Source of the DNA: Deltaproteobacteria bacterium
Lineage (GTDB): Bacteria > Myxococcota > B64-G9
Length of the DNA stretch: 36,717 bases
Direction of reading: 5' to 3'
NCBI GenBank assembly: GCA_016935365.1
Contig: JAFGRB010000194.1
Span: 1 to 36,717 of the forward strand
Under the pieces are notes generated by a model, which did not search any database, had not been told where the DNA came from, and saw only the letters and a program-made list of their open reading frames with translations. The position numbers were made by a program, and so were the translations under genes. This document shows, piece after piece, positions 3,259-16,559 of the stretch. Positions within the stretch are counted from its first letter, which is position 1, and each line of letters opens with the position of its first letter.

Positions 3259-3969
3259 ATGGGAATCCTCGGACGGATCAACGACATCATCCGCTCCAAC
3301 CTCAACCTGCTCATCTCCAAGGCCGAGAACCCGGAGAAGCTGCTCCGGCAGGCGATCCTGGACATGGAGGATCACCTGCGCAAGGCGCGCAAGCAGGTCA
3401 TGGGCACCCTGGCCGCGGAGAAGCAGCTGGAGAAGAGGCGCGAGTCCGTCCAGCGCGATGCGCAGCGCTGGGAGAAGCGGGCGGAGCTCGCGCTGGAGGC
3501 CGGCGATGAGGACCTGGCGCGGCAGGCGCTGGCGCGCAAGGGCGAGCTCGATCAGCGGGCCGAGGGGATGGAGGAGCGGATCCGGATCCAGCGCGAGTAC
3601 GTCGGCGCGCTCAAGCAGAGCCTCGCCTCGCTGGAGGAACGCCTGCGCGAGGCCCGCGCGCGCAAGGACGCGCTCGTCGAGCGGGCCCGCTCGGCCGCCG
3701 AGCGCCGCAAGAACGCCGAGCTGCTCGATCCGCTCGAGGAGACGAGCCCGATCAAGGAGGCCGGCGGTCCCGCGGGCACGCTGGAGCGCATGGAGGACCG
3801 GGTGCGCGAGCTGGAGAGCAAGGTCGAGGCCTACGCCGAGATGGCCGATCCGGGCCAGCTGGACGAGCCCGATCCGGCGCTGGATGCGCACTTCAGCTCC
3901 CTGGAGCAGAGCCAGGAGGTCGAGGGACAGCTCGAGGCCCTCAAGGAGCGCCTGGCCAAAAAGGACTGA
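3259..3969 (+). CDS. pspA: PspA/IM30 phage-shock protein A
   Basis: 236-residue, almost wholly helical PspA/Vipp1 (ESCRT-III-like) family protein. The N-terminal amphipathic helix (MGILGRINDIIRSNLN), used for membrane binding, is followed by long charged coiled-coil helices to about residue 215. Length is close to the usual 220-230. Family members polymerise on stressed inner membranes and block proton leakage. The start is the ATG 8 nt after AAAGGAG; upstream in-frame ATGs would add non-homologous sequence. It has its own sigma54-type promoter and is separated by 125 bp from a second pspA paralog. Confidence 0.92.
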   Translation: MGILGRINDIIRSNLNLLISKAENPEKLLRQAILDMEDHLRKARKQVMGTLAAEKQLEKRRESVQRDAQRWEKRAELALEAGDEDLARQALARKGELDQRAEGMEERIRIQREYVGALKQSLASLEERLREARARKDALVERARSAAERRKNAELLDPLEETSPIKEAGGPAGTLERMEDRVRELESKVEAYAEMADPGQLDEPDPALDAHFSSLEQSQEVEGQLEALKERLAKKD

Positions 3970-4094: not shown

Positions 4095-4778
4095 ATGGGC
4101 ATCCTCGAACGCACACGGCACGTCATTCGGGCCGATCTGAACGATCTGGTCAGGAAAGCCAGGAACCCGGAGGAGGTCCTGGCCGCCTACCTGGAAGACC
4201 TCGAGGCGGTGCGCGCCGAGGCGAGCAGCCTCCGGGCGGCCGAGTCGGCCGAGCGGGACGCCTTCGAGTCTCGGCTCCGAGATCTGCAATCCGCCCAGGA
4301 CAACTGGGTCGCGAAGGCCCGCAGCGCGGTCCGGCAGGGCGAGGAGGCTCTGGCCCGCGCGGCGCTGGACAAGAAGCTGGACCTCCAGGACGAGATCGAC
4401 GCGGCCCGCGACGAGCTCGAGCAGCGCCGGGCTTCGCTGGAGGTGCTGGAGGACAGCCTGGAGTCGCTGCGCTTGCGTATCTCGGAGGTCGGCCGCAAGC
4501 GCCGGGAGCTGAGGATGCGGCGCCAGGTGATCCAGGCCCGATCCGAGCTCCAGCAGGCCATGAACCGGCTGGAGGCGGACCGGGACGCGCCCTTGATCGA
4601 GGAGGCCGAGCAGGGGCTGAGCGAGATCGAGAGCAGCCTCGAGGCCTCGGAGGCCCTGGACGCGGAAGGTGTGGAGCGCAGGATGCTCAAGCTGGAGGCG
4701 GATGCGCGCAAGCGGCGCCGCGAGCAGGTCATCGCGGACGAGCTCGACGCGATCAAGGCGGAGCTGAAGAAAGGCTGA
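4095..4778 (+). CDS. Second PspA/IM30-family paralog
   Basis: 227 residues, starting with the same MGILxR N-terminal amphipathic helix and continuing in long heptad-like helices. It is clearly diverged from the first pspA: shared N-terminal pattern (IRxxLNxLxxKAxNPExxL) but a different C-terminal region rich in Glu/Arg. A strong SD (AGGAG) lies 8 nt before the ATG. It is the first gene of the run leading to NfeD and flotillin; PspA-type proteins linked to NfeD/flotillin genes are known elsewhere (for example LiaH or YdjF contexts in Bacillus). It probably acts as a membrane scaffold specialised for the flotillin module (inference). Confidence 0.88.
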   Translation: MGILERTRHVIRADLNDLVRKARNPEEVLAAYLEDLEAVRAEASSLRAAESAERDAFESRLRDLQSAQDNWVAKARSAVRQGEEALARAALDKKLDLQDEIDAARDELEQRRASLEVLEDSLESLRLRISEVGRKRRELRMRRQVIQARSELQQAMNRLEADRDAPLIEEAEQGLSEIESSLEASEALDAEGVERRMLKLEADARKRRREQVIADELDAIKAELKKG

Positions 4779-4815
4779 ACGGGCGGCCGTCGGTGGCCGC
4801 GAGGTGAGTCGGCGG

Positions 4816-5565
4816 ATGCTGGACCTGGTACGAGAAGAGGAGTGGGTGGCCCACCTGACCGGGCTGGGCTTCGAGGAGCTGCTGAGCATCCTCGATGACG
4901 AGAGCCCGGCCGACCTCTGCGAGCGCTATGCCGAGGTGGCCGACCGCTACCTGGTCCTCAGCGGCAAGGGACACCGGAGCGATGCCGAGGAGCTGGAGCT
5001 CGACGTGCTCGACTCGGCCCTGCGGGTCCTGCTGGGCGAGACCAGCTTGCTCGTGCTGGCCGGCCGCCTGCTCACGGTGCTCAAGGTGGCCTGGACCTCG
5101 GCGGTCGTCTTTCGCCTGCCGGCGCCGCCGAGCGATCTGCTGCTGAGGACCCGGCTGGATCTGGGCCGGCTGGGGCGGATCGCCGAGATGGGGCTCAAGG
5201 GGCCTGTCCCGGTGGAGACGGGCTGGATCGCCGAGCGGGCCAGGCGCGCATCGGAGGCCGCAGCCGCGCTGAGCGAGCTCGAGGCGGGGCGCGGGACCTG
5301 GGGCTGGCTCAGCCGCAAGCTCGTGGCGCGCCGCGGCCTGAGCAAGCTGCTGGACGGGCTGACGGCCGCAGGCGCACCCGAGGAGGCCTGGGAGGCTGCC
5401 CGGGGACTGTTCAGCCCGGATCGCAACTCGTCGGCCGAGCTGGTCCAGCGCTTGATGATCTGCCACCAGGCCGTGGGGCTCGTCGACTGCATGGCGATCG
5501 CCCAGAAAGCCAGCCGCTGGGTGCGCGACCTGGCTGCCCTGGTGCGCGAGGGCCTCGGGGCCTGA
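4816..5565 (+). CDS. Unrecognised helical protein of the PspA-flotillin operon
   Basis: About 249 residues, no family recognised. It is soluble and helix-rich with no signal peptide or convincing membrane span; the hydrophobic stretch LLVLAGRLLTVLKVAW (near 80-95) could be a buried helix. It is acidic in the N-terminal half and basic or mixed in the C-terminal half. The ATG at 4816 is preferred because GAGGTGA at 4801-4807 is a good ribosome site 8 nt before it; a GTG at 4804 would add four residues but overlap that site. It lies 37 bp after the pspA paralog and 56 bp before the NfeD-like gene, so it is co-transcribed. A role as adaptor between PspA and flotillin is a guess from position only. 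Confidence 0.75.
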   Translation: MLDLVREEEWVAHLTGLGFEELLSILDDESPADLCERYAEVADRYLVLSGKGHRSDAEELELDVLDSALRVLLGETSLLVLAGRLLTVLKVAWTSAVVFRLPAPPSDLLLRTRLDLGRLGRIAEMGLKGPVPVETGWIAERARRASEAAAALSELEAGRGTWGWLSRKLVARRGLSKLLDGLTAAGAPEEAWEAARGLFSPDRNSSAELVQRLMICHQAVGLVDCMAIAQKASRWVRDLAALVREGLGA

Positions 5566-5621
5566 GGAGCTGGGCGGCGGGAAGTGAAGGCCGCCCGAAA
5601 ACGCGAAAGGAGTCGTTGGCC

Positions 5622-6287
5622 ATGATGACCTTGTACCTCATCTGCTTGCTGGTCGGACTGGTCTTCGCCGTGCTGTCGTTCATCTTCTCCGGCGGGTTCG
5701 AGGCCTCGGTGGACACGGCCGGCGACGTGGGCGTGGACGCGCACGTGGACGTCGGCGCGGACGGCGACATCGTCGGCGGCGATCACGGCGTGGGCGACGT
5801 GCACTTCCCGCTCTTCAGCCCGGTGGTGCTGGCCTCCTTCGTGGCCGCTTTCGGCGGCGGCGGAATCATCGGGCTCAAGCTCCACCTGGGCTCGCTGAGC
5901 GTCCTGGTCGGCCTGGGCGGCGGAGCCGGCCTGGGCCTGCTGATGGGGTACATCGTCATGAAGCTCTACAAGCACCTGGAGACGAACGCGCTGACCACGG
6001 TCAGCAGCATCATCGGCCAGATCGGCGAGGTGACCGAGGCCATCCCCGCCGAGGGCGTCGGCCAGATCTCGTTTTCGGGCAAGAGCCAGCGCATCAGCGG
6101 GCCGGCCCGCGCCGAGGAGAAGAAGGACATCAAGCGCCACGCCATGGTCACCATCACCCGGGTCGTGGGCGGGCTGTACTTCGTGCGCGAGCACGTCGAT
6201 GAGAAGCTCAGGGACCTCGCGGCCGAGGAGAGGGAAAAGGCCGAGAAAGCCGAGAAAGCCGAGAAAGCAGAAGAAAAGACCGAATGA
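5622..6287 (+). CDS. NfeD/YuaF-like membrane protein
   Basis: 221 residues. N-terminal membrane helix (about 4-24), a Gly/Asp/Val-rich loop, two further membrane helices (about 65-80 and 90-115), then a soluble beta-rich domain (about 130-190), the arrangement of short NfeD (YuaF/YqiJ) proteins with a C-terminal OB fold. These proteins are coded beside flotillins and needed for flotillin assemblies. The tail is an Ala-Glu-Lys run built on three exact 9-bp copies (GCCGAGAAA, 6240-6266). The start at the ATG 9 nt after AAAGGAG is preferred over an upstream TTG at 5616. The OB-fold assignment rests on context and pattern, not on alignment. Confidence 0.8.
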   Translation: MMTLYLICLLVGLVFAVLSFIFSGGFEASVDTAGDVGVDAHVDVGADGDIVGGDHGVGDVHFPLFSPVVLASFVAAFGGGGIIGLKLHLGSLSVLVGLGGGAGLGLLMGYIVMKLYKHLETNALTTVSSIIGQIGEVTEAIPAEGVGQISFSGKSQRISGPARAEEKKDIKRHAMVTITRVVGGLYFVREHVDEKLRDLAAEEREKAEKAEKAEKAEEKTE

Positions 6288-6333: not shown

Positions 6334-7818
6334 ATGTTCGAGAATCTCTTCGCCACCACCGCCGCCCTGCTCGAGGAGGGCATCGACATCGTGTGGGTCG
6401 GCGTGGCCATCGGCGTCGTCGTCTTCCTCATGCTGGTCGTCTTCGTCAAGCGCTACATGAAGGTCGGCCCCAACGAGGCCATGATCGTCACCGGCGCCTT
6501 CACGCGCAGCATCCCCCGCGTCGTGCACGGCGGCGGCAAGTTCGTCTGGCCCGGCCTGCAGAAGGCGGAGATCCTGAGCCTGGAGGTCATCACCATCGAC
6601 GTGCGCACGCCGGAGGTCTACACCGAGAAGGGCGTGCCGATCATCGTCGACGGGATCGCCCAGATCAAGGTCCACGCCACGGACCAGTCCATCCGGACCG
6701 CGGCCGAGCAGTTCCTCGGCCGGGGGCGCAACGAGATCATGAACGTGGCCAAGCAGACCCTGGAGGGGCACCTGCGCGCCATCCTCGGCCAGATGGAGGT
6801 CGAGGACATCTACAAGAACCGCGACATGTTCGCCCAGAAGGTCCAGGAGACCTCGGCCACCGACTTCGCCAAGATGGGCCTCGAGATCGTCTCCTTCACC
6901 CTGCGCGACATCAAGGACAACGAGGGCTACCTGGACGCGCTGGGCAAGCCGCGGCTGGCCCAGGTCAAGCGGGACGCGGTGGTCGCCCAGGCCGAGGCGG
7001 ACCGGGACGCGGTCATCAAGTCGGCCCAGGCCAAGCAGGCCGGCGAAACCGAGCGCTACAAGCAGGAGACCCAGATCGCCGAGGCCCACCGGGACTACAA
7101 CGTCAAGCTGGCCGAGTACCAGGTCACCGTCAACGAGCGCAAGGCCGAGGCGGATCTGGCCTACGACCTGTCCAAGTTCAAGAAGGCCCAGCACGTGAAG
7201 AAGGAGGAGGTCCAGGTCGAGGTCGTGGAGAAGCAGCAGCAGATCGTGGTCCAGGAGAGCGAGATCGCCCGCAAGCAGAAGGAGCTCGACGCCACGGTCA
7301 ACAAGCCGGCCGATGCCCGACGCTACGCGGTCCAGGTCCAGGCCGACGCCGAGCGATACAAGATCGAGGCCGAGGCGTCCGGCCGCGCCGAGGCGCAGAA
7401 GGTCCAGGGCTTCGCCGAGGCCGAGGTCATCAAGGCCACCGGCAACGCCGAGGCGGCTTCCACCAAGGCCCGGGGCCTTGCGCGGGCCGAGGTCATCCAG
7501 GCCCAGGGCCTGGCCGAGGCGCAGGCCATGGCCAAGAAAGCCGAGAGCTGGAAGCAGTACAACGAGGCGGCCATCACCCAGATGTTCATCGAGGTGCTGC
7601 CCGAGCTGGCCAAGAGCATCGCGGAGCCCCTGAACAAGATGGACAAGATCGTGGTGGTCAACACGGGCGGCGAGAGCGCCGGCATGAGCAAGATCACCGG
7701 CGACGTGGCCAACATCATCTCCCAGCTGCCACCGGTGGTCGAGGCGCTCTCGGGGGTCAACCTGGGCGAAATGGTCAAGCGGATCCCGGGCATCGGCGAC
7801 AGCAAGAGCAAGAAGTAG
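6334..7818 (+). CDS. floT: Flotillin (SPFH/band 7 protein, YuaG/YqiK type)
   Basis: 494 residues. One N-terminal membrane helix (about 19-38), an SPFH/band 7 domain (about 43-220), and a long Ala/Glu-rich coiled-coil flotillin domain (about 220-410, with repeated EA-rich segments) ending in a conserved-looking tail. This is the FloT/YuaG architecture: oligomeric scaffold of membrane microdomains that controls membrane fluidity and the assembly of signalling and secretion complexes. SD GGGAGGA lies just before the ATG. It follows the NfeD-like gene by 46 bp, the typical nfeD-flotillin order, and is followed within 6 bp by the pseudo-carbonic-anhydrase gene. Confidence 0.92.
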   Translation: MFENLFATTAALLEEGIDIVWVGVAIGVVVFLMLVVFVKRYMKVGPNEAMIVTGAFTRSIPRVVHGGGKFVWPGLQKAEILSLEVITIDVRTPEVYTEKGVPIIVDGIAQIKVHATDQSIRTAAEQFLGRGRNEIMNVAKQTLEGHLRAILGQMEVEDIYKNRDMFAQKVQETSATDFAKMGLEIVSFTLRDIKDNEGYLDALGKPRLAQVKRDAVVAQAEADRDAVIKSAQAKQAGETERYKQETQIAEAHRDYNVKLAEYQVTVNERKAEADLAYDLSKFKKAQHVKKEEVQVEVVEKQQQIVVQESEIARKQKELDATVNKPADARRYAVQVQADAERYKIEAEASGRAEAQKVQGFAEAEVIKATGNAEAASTKARGLARAEVIQAQGLAEAQAMAKKAESWKQYNEAAITQMFIEVLPELAKSIAEPLNKMDKIVVVNTGGESAGMSKITGDVANIISQLPPVVEALSGVNLGEMVKRIPGIGDSKSKK

Positions 7819-7824
7819 CCTGCA

Positions 7825-9264
7825 ATGGTGCTCGACGATCTCATCAAGGCCAATGCCCGCTTCGTCCAGGCGGGCGGAGCTGGCAGAGTCGACCGGCCTC
7901 GGGCAGAGCCCGACCTGCTCGTCGTGGCAGGCGCCGGCCCGGATCTCGCCGGTCTGATCCACCCCGCCCTGGGGCTCGAGCCGGGCCAGGCGGTGGTAAT
8001 CCAGCTCGGCGGCGCCTGGGGCGGCAAGGAGGGCCAGGAGCTGCTGCGCTCCGCCGTCCTCGGGGTCCACCTCCACGGCTGCCGCCAGGTGGTGGTGCTC
8101 GGCGCGAGCGGGGCAGCCGACTGCCCGCCCAGCCGCCGGGAGCTCCGGAGGCGCGCGTCGGAAGCCGGCATCCGGCCGGGCTCGTCGGAGGCCGAGCGCC
8201 TGCTCGAGCTCGCCAACGGCCCGAACAGCCCCAGCGCCGGGGTGGAGGAGACGGTGCGGCTGCTTCGGCACTCGCCCCTGCTGCCCGACGACATGCCGGT
8301 CCACGGCTGCCTGCTCGATCCGGACACGGGCCTGCTGCAGGTCATCGACCGCGACAGCCGCGGCGACGCCGCGAGGCGCGAGCAGGTCGCTCGGCAGCCG
8401 GAGCCCTCGTACGAGCAGGGCGCGCCCGATATCCCGCTGCCCGAGCTGCCCGAGATCCCCCTGCCCGAGATCCCCGAGCTGGACATCGACAGCCTGGCCG
8501 AGCCGAAGCCCCCGCCCGAGACCCGCAAGGCCAGCGAGTACGGCCAGGCGCTCTCTGACGGCCAGAAGCCGGGTCCGGTCCCGTTCTCCGCGATGGTCAA
8601 GATGGCCGCGCCCGTGTTCGAGGGTCTGGATCTCATCGAGCCTCCTCGCATGAGCGCGCCCGCGATCTCCTTCGAGGTGCCCGAGACGGCCGCCATCCAG
8701 GACACCGGTTTGGGCGAGCTCGACATGCCGGGCCAGCCTGCGCTCCTCGGCAAGCTGGAGGTGGAGGCGAGGCCCGGCGTCCAGGCCGTCGAATCGATCA
8801 GGCCAGTGGAGCCGCCGAAGCCCAGGCCCCACGTGCAGCCCCGGGTCCGCGTCCAGCCCGAGCAGCCCGAGGTCACGCCCCTGGTCCGTGGCCGGCCCAT
8901 GTCCGCCGGCCAGGCCGACACGCCCTCCGTACGGGTCGACGTCCGGGCAGGCTACTACTCCCGGGCCGGCGCCGAGCACGCCCTGGATCCCGAGCTGCAG
9001 CGCGCCCTGCTCAAGGTCGCCCGCTTCCTGGGCAGCGAGCTCACCAACGTGGATCGCAACCAGATCCTGGGCCGCATCCGGCGGGGCGCCATCTCCGGCC
9101 AGGAGACCGGAGAGCTGCTCAAGCTGCTGGTGACCCCGGTGCTCAGGCTGGGCAAGAAACGCTACGCGGTCATCAACGAGCTGCTCAAGATCAAGGAAGA
9201 CATTCCCCGGCTGGGCCGCGACGTGGCGCTGGCGCTCCTGGAGCAGACCCTCAAGGGCCTCTGA
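7825..9264 (+). CDS. Beta-carbonic-anhydrase-fold protein lacking zinc ligands, with long linker and helical tail
   Basis: 479 residues. Residues 1-178 follow the beta-carbonic anhydrase pattern of the small Rv1284 type: strand LLVVA, LGLEPGQAVVI, helix ELLRSAVLGVHLHG, strand QVVVLG, SPSAGVEETVRLLRHSP, and CLLDPDTGLLQVI. At the CxDxR site it reads G36-A-G38-P-D40, and at the H-T-D-C site A94-S-G-A97. All three zinc ligands and the Asp/Arg dyad are therefore gone and it cannot be a carbonic anhydrase by the known mechanism. Residues about 190-375 are a Pro/Glu-rich low-complexity linker (LPELPEIPLPEIPEL). Residues 385-479 form an unrecognised helical domain. It starts 6 bp after flotillin, so it is almost certainly co-expressed. 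The fold call is from remembered family patterns, not a profile search. Confidence 0.8.
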   Translation: MVLDDLIKANARFVQAGGAGRVDRPRAEPDLLVVAGAGPDLAGLIHPALGLEPGQAVVIQLGGAWGGKEGQELLRSAVLGVHLHGCRQVVVLGASGAADCPPSRRELRRRASEAGIRPGSSEAERLLELANGPNSPSAGVEETVRLLRHSPLLPDDMPVHGCLLDPDTGLLQVIDRDSRGDAARREQVARQPEPSYEQGAPDIPLPELPEIPLPEIPELDIDSLAEPKPPPETRKASEYGQALSDGQKPGPVPFSAMVKMAAPVFEGLDLIEPPRMSAPAISFEVPETAAIQDTGLGELDMPGQPALLGKLEVEARPGVQAVESIRPVEPPKPRPHVQPRVRVQPEQPEVTPLVRGRPMSAGQADTPSVRVDVRAGYYSRAGAEHALDPELQRALLKVARFLGSELTNVDRNQILGRIRRGAISGQETGELLKLLVTPVLRLGKKRYAVINELLKIKEDIPRLGRDVALALLEQTLKGL

Positions 9265-9277
9265 GCCGCTTCCGAGC

Positions 9278-9871
9278 ATGAACCGGAATCTCGTCGTCGT
9301 TCTTCTCGTCCTCGTCGCCGCGGCGGTGGTCTCTTTTTTGTACTTGCGGCCCGAGCGGGTGAGCGAGGAGCTCGCTCTCCACACGCCCGCCGGCGAGCGC
9401 GTCGCCCTGGACGATCTCTTCGGTGACAAGGGGAAGGTGCTGCTCGTCGTCCTGTTCAGGACGAAGCTGGAGAGCGAGAAGAGACTGCAGCAGGCCGTCG
9501 GCATGCTGGCCGAGCAGCACCGGCTGCACTCCGGAAGCGTGGCTTTCGTGAACCTCGCGCTGAAGACCGATCTTCGAGGCGTCAACTGGGAAGCGACCCA
9601 AAAAGAGATCCAGCAAGCGGCCTATCCCTTTCCGACCTGCGTCCTCTCGTGGGGCGAGGATGCCATGGTCGAGAGATCGCACGGGAACATCACGACCCGC
9701 ACGCGGGGAGAGGGCTTGCAGGCCTATGAGGCGTTCTACCACATCGCCTCGGGCGGCAAGCGCTGCATCCAGGATGCGGCCGCCGTGATGCTGGACCGGG
9801 ATCGCCGCGTGCTGTTCAGGCTGGACGGCGAGGCGTTCATGGAGCTGCCCGAGCGCCTGGCCGGGATGTGA
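9278..9871 (+). CDS. Membrane-anchored thioredoxin-like protein without CxxC
   Basis: 197 residues. One N-terminal membrane anchor (about 5-24) followed by a predicted extracytoplasmic domain. The opening AGERVALDDLFGDKGKVLLVVLF resembles TlpA/AhpC-type thioredoxin folds, but where the redox Cys pair would sit the sequence reads FRTKLESEK, so no thiol chemistry is expected there. Two lone Cys occur later (near 117 and 164). It is the last gene of the flotillin run, 13 bp after the previous stop, and converges on the next gene with a 5-bp gap and no visible terminator. The fold call is tentative; a generic lipid-facing domain is the alternative. Confidence 0.7.
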   Translation: MNRNLVVVLLVLVAAAVVSFLYLRPERVSEELALHTPAGERVALDDLFGDKGKVLLVVLFRTKLESEKRLQQAVGMLAEQHRLHSGSVAFVNLALKTDLRGVNWEATQKEIQQAAYPFPTCVLSWGEDAMVERSHGNITTRTRGEGLQAYEAFYHIASGGKRCIQDAAAVMLDRDRRVLFRLDGEAFMELPERLAGM

Positions 9872-9876
9872 GCCGA

Positions 9877-11208
9877 TCAGTACTCGACGCAGCCCAGGTT
9901 GACCCAGGTCCCGGGGCTGGCCGCGTCGATCCGCTGGAAGTACGCCTGGCACTGCGCGTCCGAGGAGCAGTACGGGCTCTCGCACAGTCCGTCGCGGCAT
10001 TCGTAGAGGTAGGGATAATCGAAGCCGCAGCGGTAGTCGCCGATGTTCTCCGGGCAGCAGTCCTGGACGCTCTCGCACGCCTGATTGTACCTGCACTGGC
10101 CATACCAGGGCTCGCCGGTGCACGGATCGTCGTGGAGCTCGCAGCCCCCGTGGACCCAGCCCTCGGCGGGCGGGAACTGCGCTTCGAACCGCCGGCAGTG
10201 GGAGGCGCTCGTACAGCCGACATTCTTGCAGAACCCGTCAGCGCAGGCGTAGACGTAGGGATAGTCCTGCATGCAGACGTACGGCGCGATCGCTTCGGCG
10301 TCCGGGCAGCAGTCGGAGGCAGCGTTGCAGGTCTGCCGGATGGCGCACCAGCGGTTGAACGGCGCGCACTCGTTGGTCTTGCAGCCCTCGTCGATCCAGT
10401 TGCCGGCGTTGCTCGCCCGGGTCTCCTGGAAATAGCGCTGGCAGTGCGCGTCCGCGCTGCAGGTCAGGGTCTGGCAGTAACCGTCCACGCACGCGTAGCG
10501 GTAGGGGTAGTCCTGATTGCAGACGTAGGGCGCGATCGCATCGGCGTCCGGGCAGCAGTCGGAGGCAGCGTTGCAGGCCAGCCCATACTGGCAGTATGCA
10601 TAGTGGGTCTGGGTGCGCTCCCGGCAGTGGCACAGGGTCTCTTTGCACTCCAGCCCGTCGGGCTCGTAGCCCTCGTCGCACAGGCACTCGGCCTGGCCGT
10701 CTTGGTCTCTACACTCGCCGTGCCCCGAGCAGCTCACGCCCTCGCAGGGATCGCGATCGGGCACGCAGGCGAGCCCCTCGGCGTGATAGCCCGCCTCGCA
10801 GCGGCACTCGGGGCTGCCGCCCGCGTCCACGCACACGCCGTGCCCGGAGCAGCTCACACCCTCGCAGGGATCGTTGGAGTCGGGCAGGCAGGCGAGCCCC
10901 TCGGCGTGAAAGCCGGCCTCGCAGCGGCACTCGGCTGTGCCCTCGTTGTCCACGCACAGGCCGTGGCCCGAGCAGTCCACCTCGAAGCACGGGCCGGTGC
11001 TCCCGTCCTCGACGCAGGCGAGGCCCTCGGCGTGGTAGCCCGGCTGGCAGTCGCAGCGGGGGCCGCCCGGCTCGATGACGCAGGTGCCGTGGCCGGAGCA
11101 GGAGATGCCCTCGCAGGGATCGCTGCCCGCATCCGAAGCGCTGCCCGGACCGGCGCCCGAGCTGCAGGCCAGGAGGAAGAGGCACAGCAGGGCGAGCAGC
11201 CGCTTCAC
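9877..11208 (-). CDS. EGF-like repeat lipoprotein
   Basis: 443-residue surface lipoprotein. The signal peptide VKRLLALLCLFLLAC ends in a lipobox (LLAC). Four EGF-like repeats follow, with pattern CEGxxCSGHGxCxxxxGxxxCxCxxGYHAEGLAC, then three copies of an ~80-residue Cys-rich unit marked by CNAASDCCPD, DYPYxYxCxDGxC, and a C-terminal WxxxGC. GTG start: GGAGG lies 8 nt before it, and its GTGA overlaps the stop of the upstream 751-residue gene by 4 bp, indicating coupling. Likely role is extracellular binding or adhesion on the cell surface (family inference). The in-frame extension upstream of the GTG has no signal-peptide character. Confidence 0.85.
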   Translation of the reverse strand: MKRLLALLCLFLLACSSGAGPGSASDAGSDPCEGISCSGHGTCVIEPGGPRCDCQPGYHAEGLACVEDGSTGPCFEVDCSGHGLCVDNEGTAECRCEAGFHAEGLACLPDSNDPCEGVSCSGHGVCVDAGGSPECRCEAGYHAEGLACVPDRDPCEGVSCSGHGECRDQDGQAECLCDEGYEPDGLECKETLCHCRERTQTHYAYCQYGLACNAASDCCPDADAIAPYVCNQDYPYRYACVDGYCQTLTCSADAHCQRYFQETRASNAGNWIDEGCKTNECAPFNRWCAIRQTCNAASDCCPDAEAIAPYVCMQDYPYVYACADGFCKNVGCTSASHCRRFEAQFPPAEGWVHGGCELHDDPCTGEPWYGQCRYNQACESVQDCCPENIGDYRCGFDYPYLYECRDGLCESPYCSSDAQCQAYFQRIDAASPGTWVNLGCVEY

Positions 11209-13460
11209 GAAGGATACCTCCGCTCGATCCACCAGAGCAGGCAAGCCAGGGCGAGCGCCAGCCCGGGCCAGCCGGCTGCCCGGCCGCCCGGCGACGCGCA
11301 TCCCGCGGCCGGCTCGGGCTCGGCCTGCGCTTGCATTGGGAGGGCCTGCCGCGAAGCGCTGGCGGGCCTTTTCGGCGGCGCGGCCTGCGTCTCGGGCAGC
11401 GCGTCATCGGCCGACGGCTCGATCGCGAACACGATCTCTACCGGCCGCTCGCCGAGCGTGCGGTAGTCGCATGCGCTTCGCGCCCGGACCTCGAGCCGGT
11501 GCTCGCAGGGCAGCGCGAGCAGGGGGCTCGCGACCCGCAGCTCGGGGCCGGGCTGGAAGACGCTCCAGCCGCCGCCGTCCAGCCGCCAGGAGAACTCGGC
11601 CTGCGGCCCGCGATCGGCCTCCACGGCCACGCTCAGCGCGCCGGATGACGGCTTGCGTCCGGCCACCGGGATCCGGTCGGCCCGGGCCCTCACCCGCCTG
11701 CCGGCCGGCGGGCCGGCCTCCAGCTCCAGATCCGCATAGACGACCAGGAAGTCGAACCAGGCCTCCCCGTCGCGGGGCACGGCCGGCTCGACGGCCAGGA
11801 CGCGCGGCACGAAGCCCTCGACCGCCGGCAGCTCGACGACGCCGAGCGAGCCGGTCAGTTCGGGCAGGGCGAGCTCGAGCAGGAGCGGCAGGAGGGATTC
11901 GATCTGCTCCGGCTCCTCGGCCAGCAGCTCGTGATCTCGGGCGCGCACGTCCTGTACGCGGATGCTGCTCTCGTCGAAGACGGGCAGCAGCCGGTTGTCG
12001 GGCAGCAGCTCCAGGCCCAGCCACAGGGAGACGTCCTGGGTCAGGGTCGCGAGCTTGATCCAGCGCTCGTCGATCCGCGCGTAGAAATCGAGCTCGGCTT
12101 CCGGCAGGTCGATGGCCAGGAGCGGCTGATCGATGACCTTGGCGCCGTGCTCGTCCACGCTGAAGGTGCCCGCGCCGATCTCGATGCTCGGGACCTGGAG
12201 GGGGCGGAGCTGCAGGCGCATGGGGGCGTCCCGGCCGCCGCTCAGCGCGTCGAGCGATGGCAAGAAGGCCGAGAGCGTGCCCGTCGACAGCAGGCCGCCG
12301 GTCGAGTCGCTGGTGAGCTCGATGCACAGCAGACCCGCTCGCCAGGCCTTGTAGAGGGCCCGGTCCAGGAAGAAGTCGGCCGCGCCGAGGGCCAGGTCGA
12401 AGGTCTGATCGCTGCCCGGCACGAGGTCGCCCGCGGGCATGGGCAAGCGCGCCGCCGCGCCCGGAGGCGGGACGAGGTCGGGCTCGGGCTCGGGCACGCA
12501 GGCGCTCGGCGCGCTGTCCACGCCGGCCAGCAGGCGCAGCTCGAGCCCGTCCCGGACGACGACCGGGTCCTCGGTCGGAGCGCGGGACTGACCGGCCGCG
12601 ATCTCCAGGTCCAGCTCGGCCTGGAGACCGGGCAGCAGCCCCCCGAGCAGGGCGCCCGCATCCACCCGGCCCACGAGCCCCAGGGGGCGGGTCCGGCAGC
12701 CCAGCGCGTCCGCGCAGAAAGCCCCGTCCGGATCGCAAGGCGCGTCCGGGGGACAGCGGGTGTAGAAGTCGCACGGCAGGCAGGTGGCGCCGCTGATGAG
12801 ATCGGCCAGCGCGCTGTCGAGCTGGTCGGCCAGCTGCTGGTTCATCTGCTCGACGAGGACTCCCTGGAATGCCTCGACGAAGCCCCCGAGCGGCCCGTAG
12901 CAGCGCAGGGAGAAGTCGTTCTCGTCCAGCTCGAGAGCCACGCCGCTCACGTCGAAGCGGAGCAGATCGTCTCGCCCGTCCAACGCGAAGACGACATCCG
13001 CCGCGACCGGCTTGTCCCGCACGTGGACGGAGATGTCGCAGTCCACTTCGCCGGTCATGAAGAGCTCGCCCGAGAGGTCTGCGCGCATGTCCAGCTGCAG
13101 CCGGTCCGGCGCCCGGGGCGTGAGCTGGGCGCTTGCGATCTCGGCCTGGAGCTTGCAGCCTTCCGGGCAGATGTCCACCTGGATGTCGAAGATCCAGGCG
13201 TCGATGAGCTGGTGCACGGGCGGCACCTCGAAGGCGAGGCCCTCGGGCAAGGCCGCGGCGAGCAGCTCCGGCAGGTGCGCCTCGACGAGGTCGATCGCGT
13301 GCGGGCTCAGGCGCAGCTGCAAGGCGTCGTAGACACGCTCGGCCGGATCGGGCGCGGCGGGCAAGGGCGCAGCGCAGTCGCAGCCCGGATCGGTGCAGGC
13401 CAGGCCCCCGGCCAGCAGGCCGAGCGCCGCGAGCAGGCGGGTCGTTCTCCAGCGTGCCAT
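11205..13460 (-). CDS. Secreted, possibly TULIP/BPI-like lipid-binding protein with MYXO-CTERM-like tail
   Basis: 751 residues. The N-terminal signal peptide ends in a lipobox-like GGLAC. The body alternates amphipathic beta segments and includes phrases such as LSPHAIDLVEAHLPELL, MNQQLADQLDSALADLI and ALYKAWRAGLL, which resemble BPI/LBP (TULIP) folds; a Cys-rich knot (about 230-255) sits between two halves. The tail has AAGCASPGG, a hydrophobic helix, and RR near the end, close to the MYXO-CTERM sorting signal (Cys before helix before Arg). Having both a lipobox and such a tail is odd. SD GGAGGG precedes the ATG. It shares with the next gene upstream (1,015 residues) the A(W/F)xxGLL motif, so they look related. 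The lipid-binding role is an inference. Confidence 0.8.
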   Translation of the reverse strand: MARWRTTRLLAALGLLAGGLACTDPGCDCAAPLPAAPDPAERVYDALQLRLSPHAIDLVEAHLPELLAAALPEGLAFEVPPVHQLIDAWIFDIQVDICPEGCKLQAEIASAQLTPRAPDRLQLDMRADLSGELFMTGEVDCDISVHVRDKPVAADVVFALDGRDDLLRFDVSGVALELDENDFSLRCYGPLGGFVEAFQGVLVEQMNQQLADQLDSALADLISGATCLPCDFYTRCPPDAPCDPDGAFCADALGCRTRPLGLVGRVDAGALLGGLLPGLQAELDLEIAAGQSRAPTEDPVVVRDGLELRLLAGVDSAPSACVPEPEPDLVPPPGAAARLPMPAGDLVPGSDQTFDLALGAADFFLDRALYKAWRAGLLCIELTSDSTGGLLSTGTLSAFLPSLDALSGGRDAPMRLQLRPLQVPSIEIGAGTFSVDEHGAKVIDQPLLAIDLPEAELDFYARIDERWIKLATLTQDVSLWLGLELLPDNRLLPVFDESSIRVQDVRARDHELLAEEPEQIESLLPLLLELALPELTGSLGVVELPAVEGFVPRVLAVEPAVPRDGEAWFDFLVVYADLELEAGPPAGRRVRARADRIPVAGRKPSSGALSVAVEADRGPQAEFSWRLDGGGWSVFQPGPELRVASPLLALPCEHRLEVRARSACDYRTLGERPVEIVFAIEPSADDALPETQAAPPKRPASASRQALPMQAQAEPEPAAGCASPGGRAAGWPGLALALACLLWWIERRYPS

Positions 13461-13484: not shown

Positions 13485-16400
13485 CTACAGGCCACCGCCG
13501 ATGATCGTGTTACCGTCGGTGCGGTAGACCCGCTGCGGATCGAGGGCGATGACCGTGCCCGGAGGCAGCTCGGGCATGGCCGCGTGCAGGTCGATGGCCG
13601 GGAGCGGGATGCTGGCCAGCTGCCCGCCGTTGAGTGCCTCCATCAGCGCATCGACCAGCAGATCATCGAAGCCGGTCCCGATGAGATCCACGAGCCCGAC
13701 CAGGTCGTCCTGGACCACCTCGAGCTCGGTGTCGATCTGCTCGAAGCCGGTCAGCACGATCGCGATCTCGCCGTCGGCCAGGGCCAGCTCGAGCCCCATC
13801 GTGGCCGTGGCCCACACGACGAGGTCGATCGGCATGCCCTGGAAGCGGAACGAGACCCCGAGGCGCAGATCGCCCAGGAAAATGCGCAGCGCTCCGTCCG
13901 CATAGCAGTCTCCGGCGGTCGGGGCCAGCATGCCGCTCAGGGCGAGCGTGAGGTCCTCGATGCCGTAGGCGGACAGGTCGATGTCTCCGAGCAGCTCGGG
14001 CGGGATCGGGAAGTCCAGCAGGCCGCCGTACCAGGCCGCGTGGAAGAGCGCGTTCAGGGTGTCGTCGGCCAGCACGAGCTCGAAGGAGTCCGCCCCCGGC
14101 ACGACCAGCACCTGGCTGCCCGCCCCGCAGCCCGAGCGCAAGGGGAAGCCCAGGTTGTCGTACGAGGGCGGGCCGCTGGCCAGGGCCGTGGCGCGCAGGC
14201 CGATGCTGCCGCCGGCCGGGTCGAAGTCGGTGAAGGCGAAGTCGGTCGAGAGCTGGATCGGGATCGTGTCTCCCGATCCGTCCAGGCGGGGAAGCTCGAA
14301 GCTCTCGTCGAAGGCCAGCGCGCTCAGGGCATCCTGCAGCATGGGCGCGAGCTGGCCCGTGAGCTGGTCGTTGAGCTCGTCCTCCAGATCGGAGACGAGC
14401 GAATCGCGGATGAAGGACTCGACGACGCTCAACAGGATGTCGGTCCACCAGTAATCGGACCAGACATCGAGCCCGCTGATGCTCGTGCTCGGGCTGGCCA
14501 CCGTCACCGCCAGGCTGTGATCCGCGTTCACCGCGAGCAGCACGTTGGCGGTCACGGTCACCGAGTTCATGCTCACGCCGCCGGTGCTGTCGCCGCCTGT
14601 CCACCAGCAATCGCAGAAGATGCCGCTGCAGGGGCAGTCGAAGACCAGATCGCCCTCGATGCCGGTGAAGGCGGCCCGCACCCGCATGCCGCCGCTGATG
14701 GCGGTCAATGACGCGGTCGCGTTCGACTTGCGGAGCGAGGTCAGGTAGATGTTGTAGCCGGCCTCCTGGGCGATCGGATCGGACGGATCGACGAAGCTGC
14801 CCAGGTCCAGGTCGTCGAGCACCATCTCGAAGATGGTGGCCAGATCGTCCGGCGGCTGCTCGCGCACCGAGTCGTCCAGGACCTCCTGGCTGAGCCAGAT
14901 GCCGATTCCGCGGGGGACCATGTCCGGAGGGGACTCCTCCGGATCGGGGCGCCGGAAGCTGTTGGAGAAGAGGAAGGCCTGGACCCGGCGGCGGGTCGAG
15001 CCGAAGCTGTCGGTCGCCTCGAGCACGAGCTCGTTGCCGCCCACCCGCGCGGAAACCGGGTGGCTGAACATGCCGATCGCGTCCGTGGATACCAGCTCGC
15101 CGTCGATGCGCAGCTCCTCGATCGGCCCGGCGCCGCTGAGCACCCGCCCGCGGACCGTGATCACGGGGTTGGATAGATCGCCCTGCAGGGTGGCGCCGCG
15201 GGGCGGGTAGACGCCCATGAAGTGGGGGAAGCAGTGATTGCGGGCCATCAGGTCGTTGCGGCAGCCGCGGACCGGGTGGCAGGAGTCGGTCGTGCAGTCG
15301 TTGCCGTCGTCGCACAGCACCGCGGTCGCGTCGAGCCCGAGACAGGTGCCGGCCGCGTCGCCCAGGCAGTGGTCGTTCTGCGTGCAGACGTCGCCGTCGT
15401 CGCAGGCGCCCGTCAGGCCCGTGCCATCATGGGTGCAGCCCGAGGCGGGATCGCAGCCGTCGGCCGTGCAGGGGTTGCCGTCGTCGCAGTCGCGCGCCTG
15501 ACCGCCGGCGCAGCTGCCCGCCTCGTCGCCCTGGCAGCGCTCGCCCTGCGTGCAGGCATCCCCGTCGTCGCAGGCGGACAGGATATCCGTGCCGTCGTGC
15601 ACGCAGCCCAGGCGGGCGTCGCAGGTGTCGACGGTGCAGACATTGCCGTCGTCGCAGGCGCGCGGGTCGTCGAAGGTGCCGGCGCAGGTGCCGGCCGCGT
15701 CGCCGCGGCAGGTGTCGTCGTGGGTGCAGACGTTGAAGTCGTCGCAGGCGATGGTCACGCCGGTGCCGTCGTGGACGCAGCCGTGGCCCGGCTGGCACGC
15801 GTCGAGCGTGCAGGGCTTGCCGTCGTCGCAGTCGGTCGGCTCCGCGCCCAGGCAGGTGCCGGCCGCGTCGCCCTGGCAGGCGTCGCCGGACGTGCACGGC
15901 TCGCCGTCGTCGCAGCCGTCCAGCACGCCCGTGCCGTCGTGGAGGCAGCCGAGCAGCGCATCGCAGGCGTCGGCCGTGCAGGGGTTGTCGTCGTCGCAGT
16001 CGGCCGAGACGTCCGTGCCCGCGCAGGTGCCAGCGCGATCTCCGAGGCAGAAGTCCTGCTCGGTGCAGGCGTCGCCGTCGTCGCAGGCCAGATGGACTCC
16101 GCGGCCGTCGTTCACGCAGCCCGTGTCTGGATCGCAGCTGTCGGCAGTACACGCGTTGCCGTCGTCGCAGTCGGCCGAGATGTCCGTGCCCGCGCAGGTG
16201 CCCAGCAGGTCGCCCTGGCAGATGTCGAGCGCGGTGCAGGCGTTGCCGTCATCGCAGTCCAGCTGCACGCCCGTGCCGTCGTGCACGCAGCCCGTGGCGG
16301 GATCGCAGCTGTCGGCGGTGCAGTCGTTGCCGTCGTCGCACTCGACCGCGGCGTCGATCTGGAAGATGCGGCAGGTCCGGTCCGGGTTGCACCGCTCCCA

Positions 16401-16532
16401 GGTGCAGGCGTTGCCGTCGTCGCAGTCGGCGTCCTGCCTGCACTCGTCATGGCCGGCGGGCGCCGAATCCCCGCAGCCGGCCAGGAACGAGAAGAGAACG
16501 ACGACCAGAGCAGACCCGGTATGTGCGCGCAT
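13485..16532 (-). CDS. Giant Cys-rich repeat lipoprotein with TULIP-like C-terminal region
   Basis: 1,015 residues. Lipoprotein signal MRAHTGSALVVVLFSFLAGC. Then about 14 Cys-rich units of 26-30 residues (roughly 28-430), alternating between type A, CDDGNxCTADxCDPxxGCxHDGTG, and type B, CDDGxxCTxxxxCxGDxAGTCxG. They match the Dictyostelium (slime-mold) repeat consensus. An Ig-like strand domain follows (about 430-515), then about 500 residues of BPI/TULIP-like sequence, including LSVVESFIRDSLVSDLEDEL and DDTLNALFHAAWYGGLL. The ATG at 16532 is preferred over a GTG at 16550 because AGGAGG lies 6 nt before it. It is 24 bp upstream of the 751-residue gene, so the three Cys-rich genes form one operon. 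Likely outer-membrane-anchored, surface-exposed. Confidence 0.83.
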   Translation of the reverse strand: MRAHTGSALVVVLFSFLAGCGDSAPAGHDECRQDADCDDGNACTWERCNPDRTCRIFQIDAAVECDDGNDCTADSCDPATGCVHDGTGVQLDCDDGNACTALDICQGDLLGTCAGTDISADCDDGNACTADSCDPDTGCVNDGRGVHLACDDGDACTEQDFCLGDRAGTCAGTDVSADCDDDNPCTADACDALLGCLHDGTGVLDGCDDGEPCTSGDACQGDAAGTCLGAEPTDCDDGKPCTLDACQPGHGCVHDGTGVTIACDDFNVCTHDDTCRGDAAGTCAGTFDDPRACDDGNVCTVDTCDARLGCVHDGTDILSACDDGDACTQGERCQGDEAGSCAGGQARDCDDGNPCTADGCDPASGCTHDGTGLTGACDDGDVCTQNDHCLGDAAGTCLGLDATAVLCDDGNDCTTDSCHPVRGCRNDLMARNHCFPHFMGVYPPRGATLQGDLSNPVITVRGRVLSGAGPIEELRIDGELVSTDAIGMFSHPVSARVGGNELVLEATDSFGSTRRRVQAFLFSNSFRRPDPEESPPDMVPRGIGIWLSQEVLDDSVREQPPDDLATIFEMVLDDLDLGSFVDPSDPIAQEAGYNIYLTSLRKSNATASLTAISGGMRVRAAFTGIEGDLVFDCPCSGIFCDCWWTGGDSTGGVSMNSVTVTANVLLAVNADHSLAVTVASPSTSISGLDVWSDYWWTDILLSVVESFIRDSLVSDLEDELNDQLTGQLAPMLQDALSALAFDESFELPRLDGSGDTIPIQLSTDFAFTDFDPAGGSIGLRATALASGPPSYDNLGFPLRSGCGAGSQVLVVPGADSFELVLADDTLNALFHAAWYGGLLDFPIPPELLGDIDLSAYGIEDLTLALSGMLAPTAGDCYADGALRIFLGDLRLGVSFRFQGMPIDLVVWATATMGLELALADGEIAIVLTGFEQIDTELEVVQDDLVGLVDLIGTGFDDLLVDALMEALNGGQLASIPLPAIDLHAAMPELPPGTVIALDPQRVYRTDGNTIIGGGL

Positions 16533-16559
16533 GGCAATCCTCCTCGGCACTCACGGTCG

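What the first reader, a model, noticed from the sequence alone, without database searches (positions are those of the whole stretch)
7825..9264. Carbonic-anhydrase fold stripped of its zinc site, fused to a Pro-rich linker and helical domain, in a flotillin operon
Residues 1-178 keep the strand and helix pattern of small beta-carbonic anhydrases, but the CxDxR site reads GAGPD (36-40) and the HxxC site reads ASGA (94-97). All metal ligands and the Asp/Arg dyad are lost. Pseudo-enzymes of this fold are rare as flotillin neighbours as far as I know. It may be a repurposed binding or oligomerisation module for a membrane microdomain complex.
Basis: partly seen in the sequence, partly recalled or inferred. 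Interest (0 to 1): 0.78.

Follow-up and report, generated by a model that had tools for sequence, protein, structure and literature searches.

The report
Dead carbonic anhydrase scaffolding flotillin complex
In a bacterial gene cluster for membrane-protecting proteins (PspA and flotillin) sits a protein whose front part is related to carbonic anhydrase and predicted to fold like it, but has all five key metal-site and catalytic residues replaced; relatives carry intact, altered, erased or missing versions, so it is likely an enzyme turned into a building block that would help assemble the membrane complex.

The parts
7825..8358 (+). beta-carbonic-anhydrase-like domain, residues 1-178, catalytically dead by sequence
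7930..7944 (+). former CxDxR site, now GAGPD (residues 36-40)
8014..8025 (+). AWGG motif (residues 64-67) that marks the pseudo-CA family; AWG at this place in 30 of 32 family members with residues there, AWGG/AWGA anywhere in 0 of 120 stand-alone CAs
8104..8115 (+). former HxxC site, now ASGA (residues 94-97)
8359..8931 (+). Pro-rich linker, residues 179-369, mostly low-confidence (predicted disordered)
   Evidence: pLDDT 38-61 by blocks of ten over 231-370; mean pairwise identity of residues 223-365 is 0.364
8434..8499 (+). linker motif PLPELPEIPLPEIPELDIDSLA (residues 204-225), possible binding peptide
   Evidence: mean pairwise identity 0.742 over residues 202-222; core pattern in 37 of 38 family proteins, none in the three fusions outside the window's family
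8932..9255 (+). C-terminal domain (three short strands plus six helices, residues 370-477), best conserved domain of the family, no known family found
6334..7818 (+). FloT-type flotillin (SPFH + Flot), stop codon 6 bases before the pseudo-CA gene
   Evidence: PF01145 1.7e-35, PF15975 1.7e-8; NF058507 4e-152
5616..6287 (+). membrane protein with weak NfeD C-terminal match (YuaF/YqiJ slot)
   Evidence: PF01957 E 0.013, below cut-off; hydrophobic segment; conserved slot
4804..5565 (+). unknown 253-aa protein conserved in the operon
   Evidence: nothing over a curated cut-off in Pfam or NCBIfam; conserved; hhalign to the same slot in L040 95.6%, L041 78.3%, L042 11.6%
4095..4778 (+). second PspA/IM30 protein
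   Evidence: PF04012 5.4e-21
3259..3969 (+). first PspA/IM30 protein (ATG at 3259)
   Evidence: PF04012 1e-40; start read

Best explanation
The protein pairs a beta-carbonic-anhydrase-related domain that has lost all three metal ligands and the Asp/Arg pair with a predicted-disordered linker and a conserved C-terminal domain, is encoded directly after a flotillin gene, and likely works as a non-enzymatic scaffold that would bring PspA, the NfeD-like protein and flotillin together at the membrane. Proposed mechanism: the CA-fold domain would self-associate as beta-CAs do and would give valency; the conserved linker motif PLPELPEIPLPEIPELDLD would bind an operon partner; and the C-terminal domain, kept even in members without the CA domain, would dock on the flotillin/NfeD/PspA assembly. 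SHOWN: domain order, residue losses, conserved operon order, relatives with intact site, Cys3His-type site, erased site or no CA domain. INFERRED: loss of activity, the direction enzyme to Cys3His to erased, dimerisation, partners, scaffold role.
For: (1) Fold by sequence and model. (2) No member has the full canonical site: 0 of 32 resolved; the other 6 of 38 are gapped there. Yet the domain stays constrained: 31 positions are at least 90% conserved across 29 members, and identity over residues 28-178 is 0.505 against 0.364 in the linker. (3) A family-specific AWG motif: 30 of 32 members; AWGG/AWGA in none of 120 stand-alone CAs. (4) Flotillin lies upstream on the same strand in all 10 loci whose contig reaches that far (window, L018, L020-L024, L040-L042): next gene in 7, with one small ORF between in 3 (L020, L021, L022). 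(5) 11 of 13 FloT genomes have the C-terminal domain, against 1 of 182 without a FloT hit, and that one (G004) is cut 431 bases upstream. (6) Fusions with intact CVDPR + HTDC/HSDC in L040 and L041. (7) The window genome has no PF00484 match or PF00194 match, so no alpha or recognisable beta enzyme was found beside it. (8) Precedents: an SPFH protein is needed to localise PspA in B. subtilis (PMC8581546, abstract and discussion read); CcmM carries a gamma-CA-like domain that lost CA motifs and organises an assembly (PMC8580825, passages).
Against: Two members (P0035, P0038) lack the CA domain, so it is dispensable there; that also fits decay. Two others (P0029, P0034) lack the C-terminal domain in the alignment; whether these are cut records was not checked. 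No complex was modelled and no interaction tested. Partners other than flotillin vary: no PspA was found in the fetched stretches of L040 or L041, and a small ORF separates flotillin from this gene in 3 of 10 loci. G011 and G020 have FloT without the C-terminal domain. The CA-domain trees disagree on whether all fusions share one origin (held-together p-AU 0.13, or 0.046 without two long rows; one side of a branch with 90/97 support when two distant rows are left out). The linker motif is absent from the three fusions outside the window's family.
Confidence: 0.6

Rival explanations
1. The domain is a passenger in decay: after the enzyme became unnecessary the fold persists by inertia and is on its way to deletion, while linker and C-terminal domain do the work.
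For: CA domain absent in P0035 and P0038; in G005, whose ORF has the P0038 sequence, only 93 bases lie between flotillin and the linker start; CA domain less conserved (0.505) than the C-terminal domain (0.635); very varied replacements at the ligand positions.
Against: Open frames in divergent members and a confident predicted fold for the window protein; 31 positions at least 90% conserved among 29 members; a conserved family-specific AWG motif. Neutral decay should not keep these.
Confidence: 0.2
2. The erased pocket was re-used: the domain is a metal-free sensor or binder of bicarbonate, a lipid head group or another small ligand that informs the membrane complex.
For: The region changed in a patterned way: AWG motif, and Asp/Glu at the old Arg position in all 11 Cys3His-type members; the operon has stress-response genes (PspA).
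Against: No shared new set of residues at the five site positions in the erased members; they differ between members. No structure with a ligand.
Confidence: 0.12
3. It is still an enzyme of another chemistry on the beta-CA fold, as COS and CS2 hydrolases are.
For: The CS2 and COS hydrolases are among the profile matches and the fold matches.
Against: None of the three ligand positions (Cys36, His94, Cys97) is kept in the window protein; of the 21 erased-site members 15 keep none, 5 keep one and 1 keeps two.
Confidence: 0.04
4. In the Cys3His clade the domain holds a structural zinc locked in a closed four-ligand state, and the window protein is a later zinc-free version.
For: 11 of 32 resolved members, and L020 and L024 among the fetched loci, have Cys at the Asp position together with Cys/His/Cys; in some beta-CAs the Asp is the fourth zinc ligand of an inactive closed site (PMC5746736, passages).
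Against: Metal binding not tested; G008 sits on a long branch, so the ancestral state is not fixed. This is compatible with the scaffold reading rather than exclusive of it.
Confidence: 0.35

Closest known systems
Cab-type beta-carbonic anhydrase (1g5c; Pfam PF00484)
   Same: Predicted fold aligns over 157 residues with rmsd 1.6 A and 26% identity
   Different: All metal ligands and the Asp/Arg pair replaced; fused to linker and C-terminal domain; the window protein is not recognised by PF00484
CcmM gamma-CA-like scaffold of beta-carboxysomes (PMC8580825, passages read)
   Same: A carbonic-anhydrase-class domain that lost CA motifs, followed by flexible linkers and binding modules
   Different: Gamma class, a different fold (recalled); carboxysome, not membrane microdomain; trimerisation and client binding shown there, not here
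PspA - band-7/flotillin - YqiJ/YuaF operons (PMC11237479, PMC9239133: passages; PMC8581546: abstract and discussion)
   Same: PspA, flotillin and NfeD/YuaF-like genes together; an SPFH protein needed to localise PspA in B. subtilis
   Different: No carbonic anhydrase is mentioned in the main texts of PMC11237479 and PMC9239133 (0 occurrences; supplements not seen); the fusion and the 253-aa partner appear to be additions
DAB2 complex, DabA2 (PMC13144422, passages)
   Same: Beta-CA-like fold working at the membrane with a membrane partner
   Different: DabA2 keeps Cys2His zinc and the Asp-Arg dyad; different partner (resembles proton-conducting subunits of Complex I)

Membership tests
Beta-carbonic anhydrase fold family | Beta-CA fold and sequence relationship | tested here: met
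Beta-carbonic anhydrase fold family | Pfam PF00484 match over the curated cut-off | tested here: not met
   No Pfam match for P0001. Of seven relatives tested, L040, L020 and L024 are over the cut-off, L041 is just under it, L042, P0035 and P0038 have none
Active beta-carbonic anhydrase | Zinc ligands Cys, His, Cys | tested here: not met
   G36, A94, A97 in the window protein
Active beta-carbonic anhydrase | Asp/Arg catalytic dyad | tested here: not met
   G38 and D40; both Asp and Arg kept in only 1 of 32 resolved family members, P0031, which lacks the Cys/His/Cys ligands
Active beta-carbonic anhydrase | Dimer or tetramer | not testable with these tools
   Single-chain prediction only
PspA-flotillin-NfeD (YuaF/YqiJ) operon | PspA/IM30 gene | tested here: met
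   PF04012 140.1 and 75.7 bits, cut-off 33.9
PspA-flotillin-NfeD (YuaF/YqiJ) operon | FloT-type flotillin | tested here: met
   PF01145 and PF15975 over cut-off; NF058507 4e-152 but 507.6 bits against a cut-off of 700
PspA-flotillin-NfeD (YuaF/YqiJ) operon | NfeD/YuaF-like membrane protein | tested here: inconclusive
   PF01957 16.2 bits, below the cut-off of 29.1; strongly hydrophobic segment
CcmM-type carbonic-anhydrase-like scaffold (works like) | CA domain without CA motifs plus flexible linker | tested here: met
   Sequence and prediction
CcmM-type carbonic-anhydrase-like scaffold (works like) | Gamma-class CA-like domain followed by SSUL modules | tested here: not met
   The first domain is beta class. 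SSUL modules were not searched for by name; the C-terminal domain of the window has no Pfam match
CcmM-type carbonic-anhydrase-like scaffold (works like) | Multivalent binding of client proteins | not tested
   No complexes were modelled

The most novel reading that the evidence does not exclude
A beta-class counterpart of CcmM: a carbonic anhydrase recruited to a flotillin/PspA membrane complex was turned, step by step and in living relatives still visible, from enzyme (CxDxR/HxxC) through a permanently closed Cys3His zinc module into a metal-free scaffold, and finally deleted, while a previously undescribed C-terminal domain kept it in the complex.
Probability: 0.4. Interest if true: 0.75.

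Novelty: new variant of a known kind. Interest (0 to 1): 0.6.

Why it matters
PspA-flotillin operons are linked to protection of bacterial membranes, but how flotillin, NfeD-like proteins and PspA are held together is largely open. This gene is a conserved partner that the main texts of two surveys of Psp systems do not mention. It gives a natural series (intact enzyme site, Cys3His-type, erased site, domain gone) for asking whether CO2/bicarbonate chemistry was once part of the membrane complex and what a CA fold does when it stops catalysing. A source names 11 of the 38 family proteins 'carbonic anhydrase', five of them with the site erased or incomplete; that label misleads.

Tried and rejected

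Single decayed copy: rejected, 21 of 32 resolved members have lost the site, with many different residues there. Chance or frame artefact: rejected by homologs, fold and synteny.

Common origin of all fusions: the CA-domain tree put the fusions outside the window's family nearer to stand-alone CAs. Holding all fusions together was not rejected (p-AU 0.13), and was borderline without two long rows (0.046). Without the two distant rows L026 and L027 all fusions fell on one side of a branch, support 90/97. Left open. The trees had 61 rows: 32 of the 38 family proteins (P0032, P0033, P0035-P0038 dropped for want of a usable CA domain), six fetched fusion loci, 20 of the 120 listed stand-alone relatives (every sixth; 163 were found, 120 listed), and L025-L027. 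The identity figures used 29 of 38 rows (P0029, P0030, P0032-P0038 dropped).

Weak C-terminal hit in G012 (E 0.007) was left out of the counts. Fisher p-values (3e-15 over 195 genomes; 3e-7 outside the family) ignore relatedness.

Trx-like reading of the downstream gene 9278-9868: nothing over a cut-off and no PDB match; not found in the other loci. Literature: no paper held all of carbonic anhydrase + flotillin + PspA + operon; 16 papers held carbonic anhydrase + flotillin + bacteri + microdomain, and the ten listed concern other subjects by title (listing only); beta-carbonic anhydrase + pseudoenzyme gave one paper, where both words stood only in its reference list. Searches found 30, 26 and 39 papers, of which 12, 8 and 10 were listed; of these only the papers cited were opened.

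Full report
1. The observation. The ORF at 7825-9264 (+) encodes 479 residues. Its start lies six bases after the stop of a flotillin gene (6334-7818), and upstream on the same strand lie two PspA/IM30 genes, an unknown 253-aa gene and an NfeD-like membrane protein. Residues 36-40 read GAGPD and 94-97 read ASGA. In HMMER alignments to solved beta-carbonic anhydrases GAGPD stands opposite CMDTR/CMDSR and ASGA at the HxxC site.

3. The family. A search of 5.8 billion proteins returned 37 homologs, and a profile search returned the same set. In the alignment 32 of 38 rows resolve the five site positions. None is canonical. Eleven read Cys, Cys, Asp/Glu, His, Cys: all three metal ligands are present, but the catalytic Asp is a Cys and the Arg is acidic. 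The other 21 have lost the site: 15 keep no ligand, five keep one and one (P0018) keeps two. One of them, P0031, keeps Asp and Arg without the Cys/His/Cys ligands. Two members, P0035 and P0038, start directly at the linker. In genome G005 the ORF has the sequence of P0038 and lies 93 bases after flotillin, too close for a CA domain; P0035 was not checked on its DNA. Conversely P0029 and P0034 lack the C-terminal domain in the alignment, perhaps cut records, not checked.

4. Relatives with the site intact. A profile of the C-terminal domain, run over 195 genomes of the phylum, found 12: 8 of 9 genomes in the window's family (the miss, G002, is about 70% complete) and G181, G182, G183 and G189 in three other families. 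A wider profile added only a weak hit in G012, left out. In G181 and G182 the fused CA domain reads CVDPR with HTDC or HSDC: all five key residues are there; L040 passes the PF00484 cut-off and L041 falls just short. In G189 the site is gone. In G183 the contig starts near the gene's C-terminal part, so its CA domain is unseen (L043). The 120 listed stand-alone relatives (of 163 found) are canonical.

5. Synteny. The order PspA, PspA, unknown 253, NfeD-like, flotillin, CA-like was found in L018, L020, L021, L022 and L024, as in the window; L023 ends after one PspA; L019 begins 431 bases before the gene and cannot tell. In L020, L021 and L022 one small ORF of 166-188 residues, lipoprotein-like by eye, lies between flotillin and the CA-like gene. 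In L040, L041 and L042 flotillin directly precedes the fusion, with an NfeD-like gene before it; L042 has a PspA upstream, while none was found in L040 or L041. Over 195 genomes, 13 have a FloT-type flotillin; 11 of these have the C-terminal domain, and only one genome has the domain without a FloT hit (G004, contig cut). G011 and G020 have FloT without it.

6. Direction of change. A tree of CA domains without the site columns keeps the window's family as one clade (98/99). On it the Cys/His/Cys set needs three changes and the three states (canonical, Cys3His, lost) four. Cys3His members occur both at the base (G008, a long branch) and in an inner clade, which fits an ancestral Cys3His state, but counts of changes do not show direction. 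Whether all fusions share one origin is open. The stepwise route is therefore inferred.

7. Constraint without catalysis. Among 29 full-length members mean pairwise identity is 0.505 in the CA domain (residues 28-178), 0.742 in the linker motif, 0.364 in the rest of the linker and 0.635 in the C-terminal domain; 31 positions of residues 1-178 are at least 90% conserved. AWG at 64-66 is in 30 of 32 members and AWGG/AWGA in none of 120 stand-alone CAs. The window's genome has no PF00484 and no PF00194 (alpha-CA) match at E 0.001. Among the nine genomes of the family only G001 has a separate, strong PF00484 match. Gamma-class enzymes were not searched, and the window's genome is about 91% complete.

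8. Mechanism. In some beta-CAs the Asp binds zinc in a closed, inactive site (PMC5746736, passages). A Cys at that place would lock a four-ligand site: a structural zinc, inferred. Losing it afterwards would leave a bare fold. CcmM shows that a dead CA-class domain can organise an assembly through linkers and binding modules (PMC8580825, passages), and an SPFH protein is needed to localise PspA in B. subtilis (PMC8581546, abstract and discussion). The two surveys of Psp systems read in passages link PspA to flotillin and YqiJ/YuaF or NfeD genes and do not mention carbonic anhydrase in their main texts (PMC11237479, PMC9239133). I therefore favour a scaffold at the flotillin complex (0.6). Decay is the main rival (0.2): the domain is absent in two members.

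9. Novelty. The operon type is known and the fold is known. I found no description of the combination, the graded site series beside flotillin or the C-terminal domain in the searches (listings) and the passages. I rate it a new variant of a known kind.

Noticed in passing
window 4804-5565: A 253-aa protein with nothing over a Pfam or NCBIfam cut-off is kept in the operons of the window's family; its first half resembles the gene in the same slot of L040 and L041.
   Followed up: partly
L020:9590-10090, L021:7587-8153, L022:9792-10298: A small ORF (166-188 residues) that looks like a lipoprotein by eye sits between flotillin and the CA-like gene in three genomes but not in the window.
   Followed up: partly
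window 9278-9871: 197-aa protein with an N-terminal hydrophobic segment and no known family follows the pseudo-CA gene by 13 bases; not found in the other loci.
   Followed up: partly
window 7957-8349 (residues 45-175): The CA-like domain also matches a phage protein family of unknown function, phrog_26042, at 1e-4.
   Followed up: no
L022 (G001) and L023 (G005), downstream of the CA-like gene: ORFs that look like macro-domain proteins (recalled motif, no profile search) lie downstream of the CA-like gene in two genomes.
   Followed up: no
L040:9147-9533: A DsrE-like gene (PF02635, 3.2e-7) directly follows the fusion with the intact CA site.
   Followed up: no
window 13485-16550 (-) and 9877-11301 (-): Large ORFs with repeated Cys-rich segments (CDDGNACT-type and EGF-like by eye) lie on the opposite strand downstream.
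   Followed up: no
homologs P0003, P0009, P0013, P0018, P0021: A source names these proteins carbonic anhydrase although the catalytic site is erased or incomplete.
   Followed up: yes
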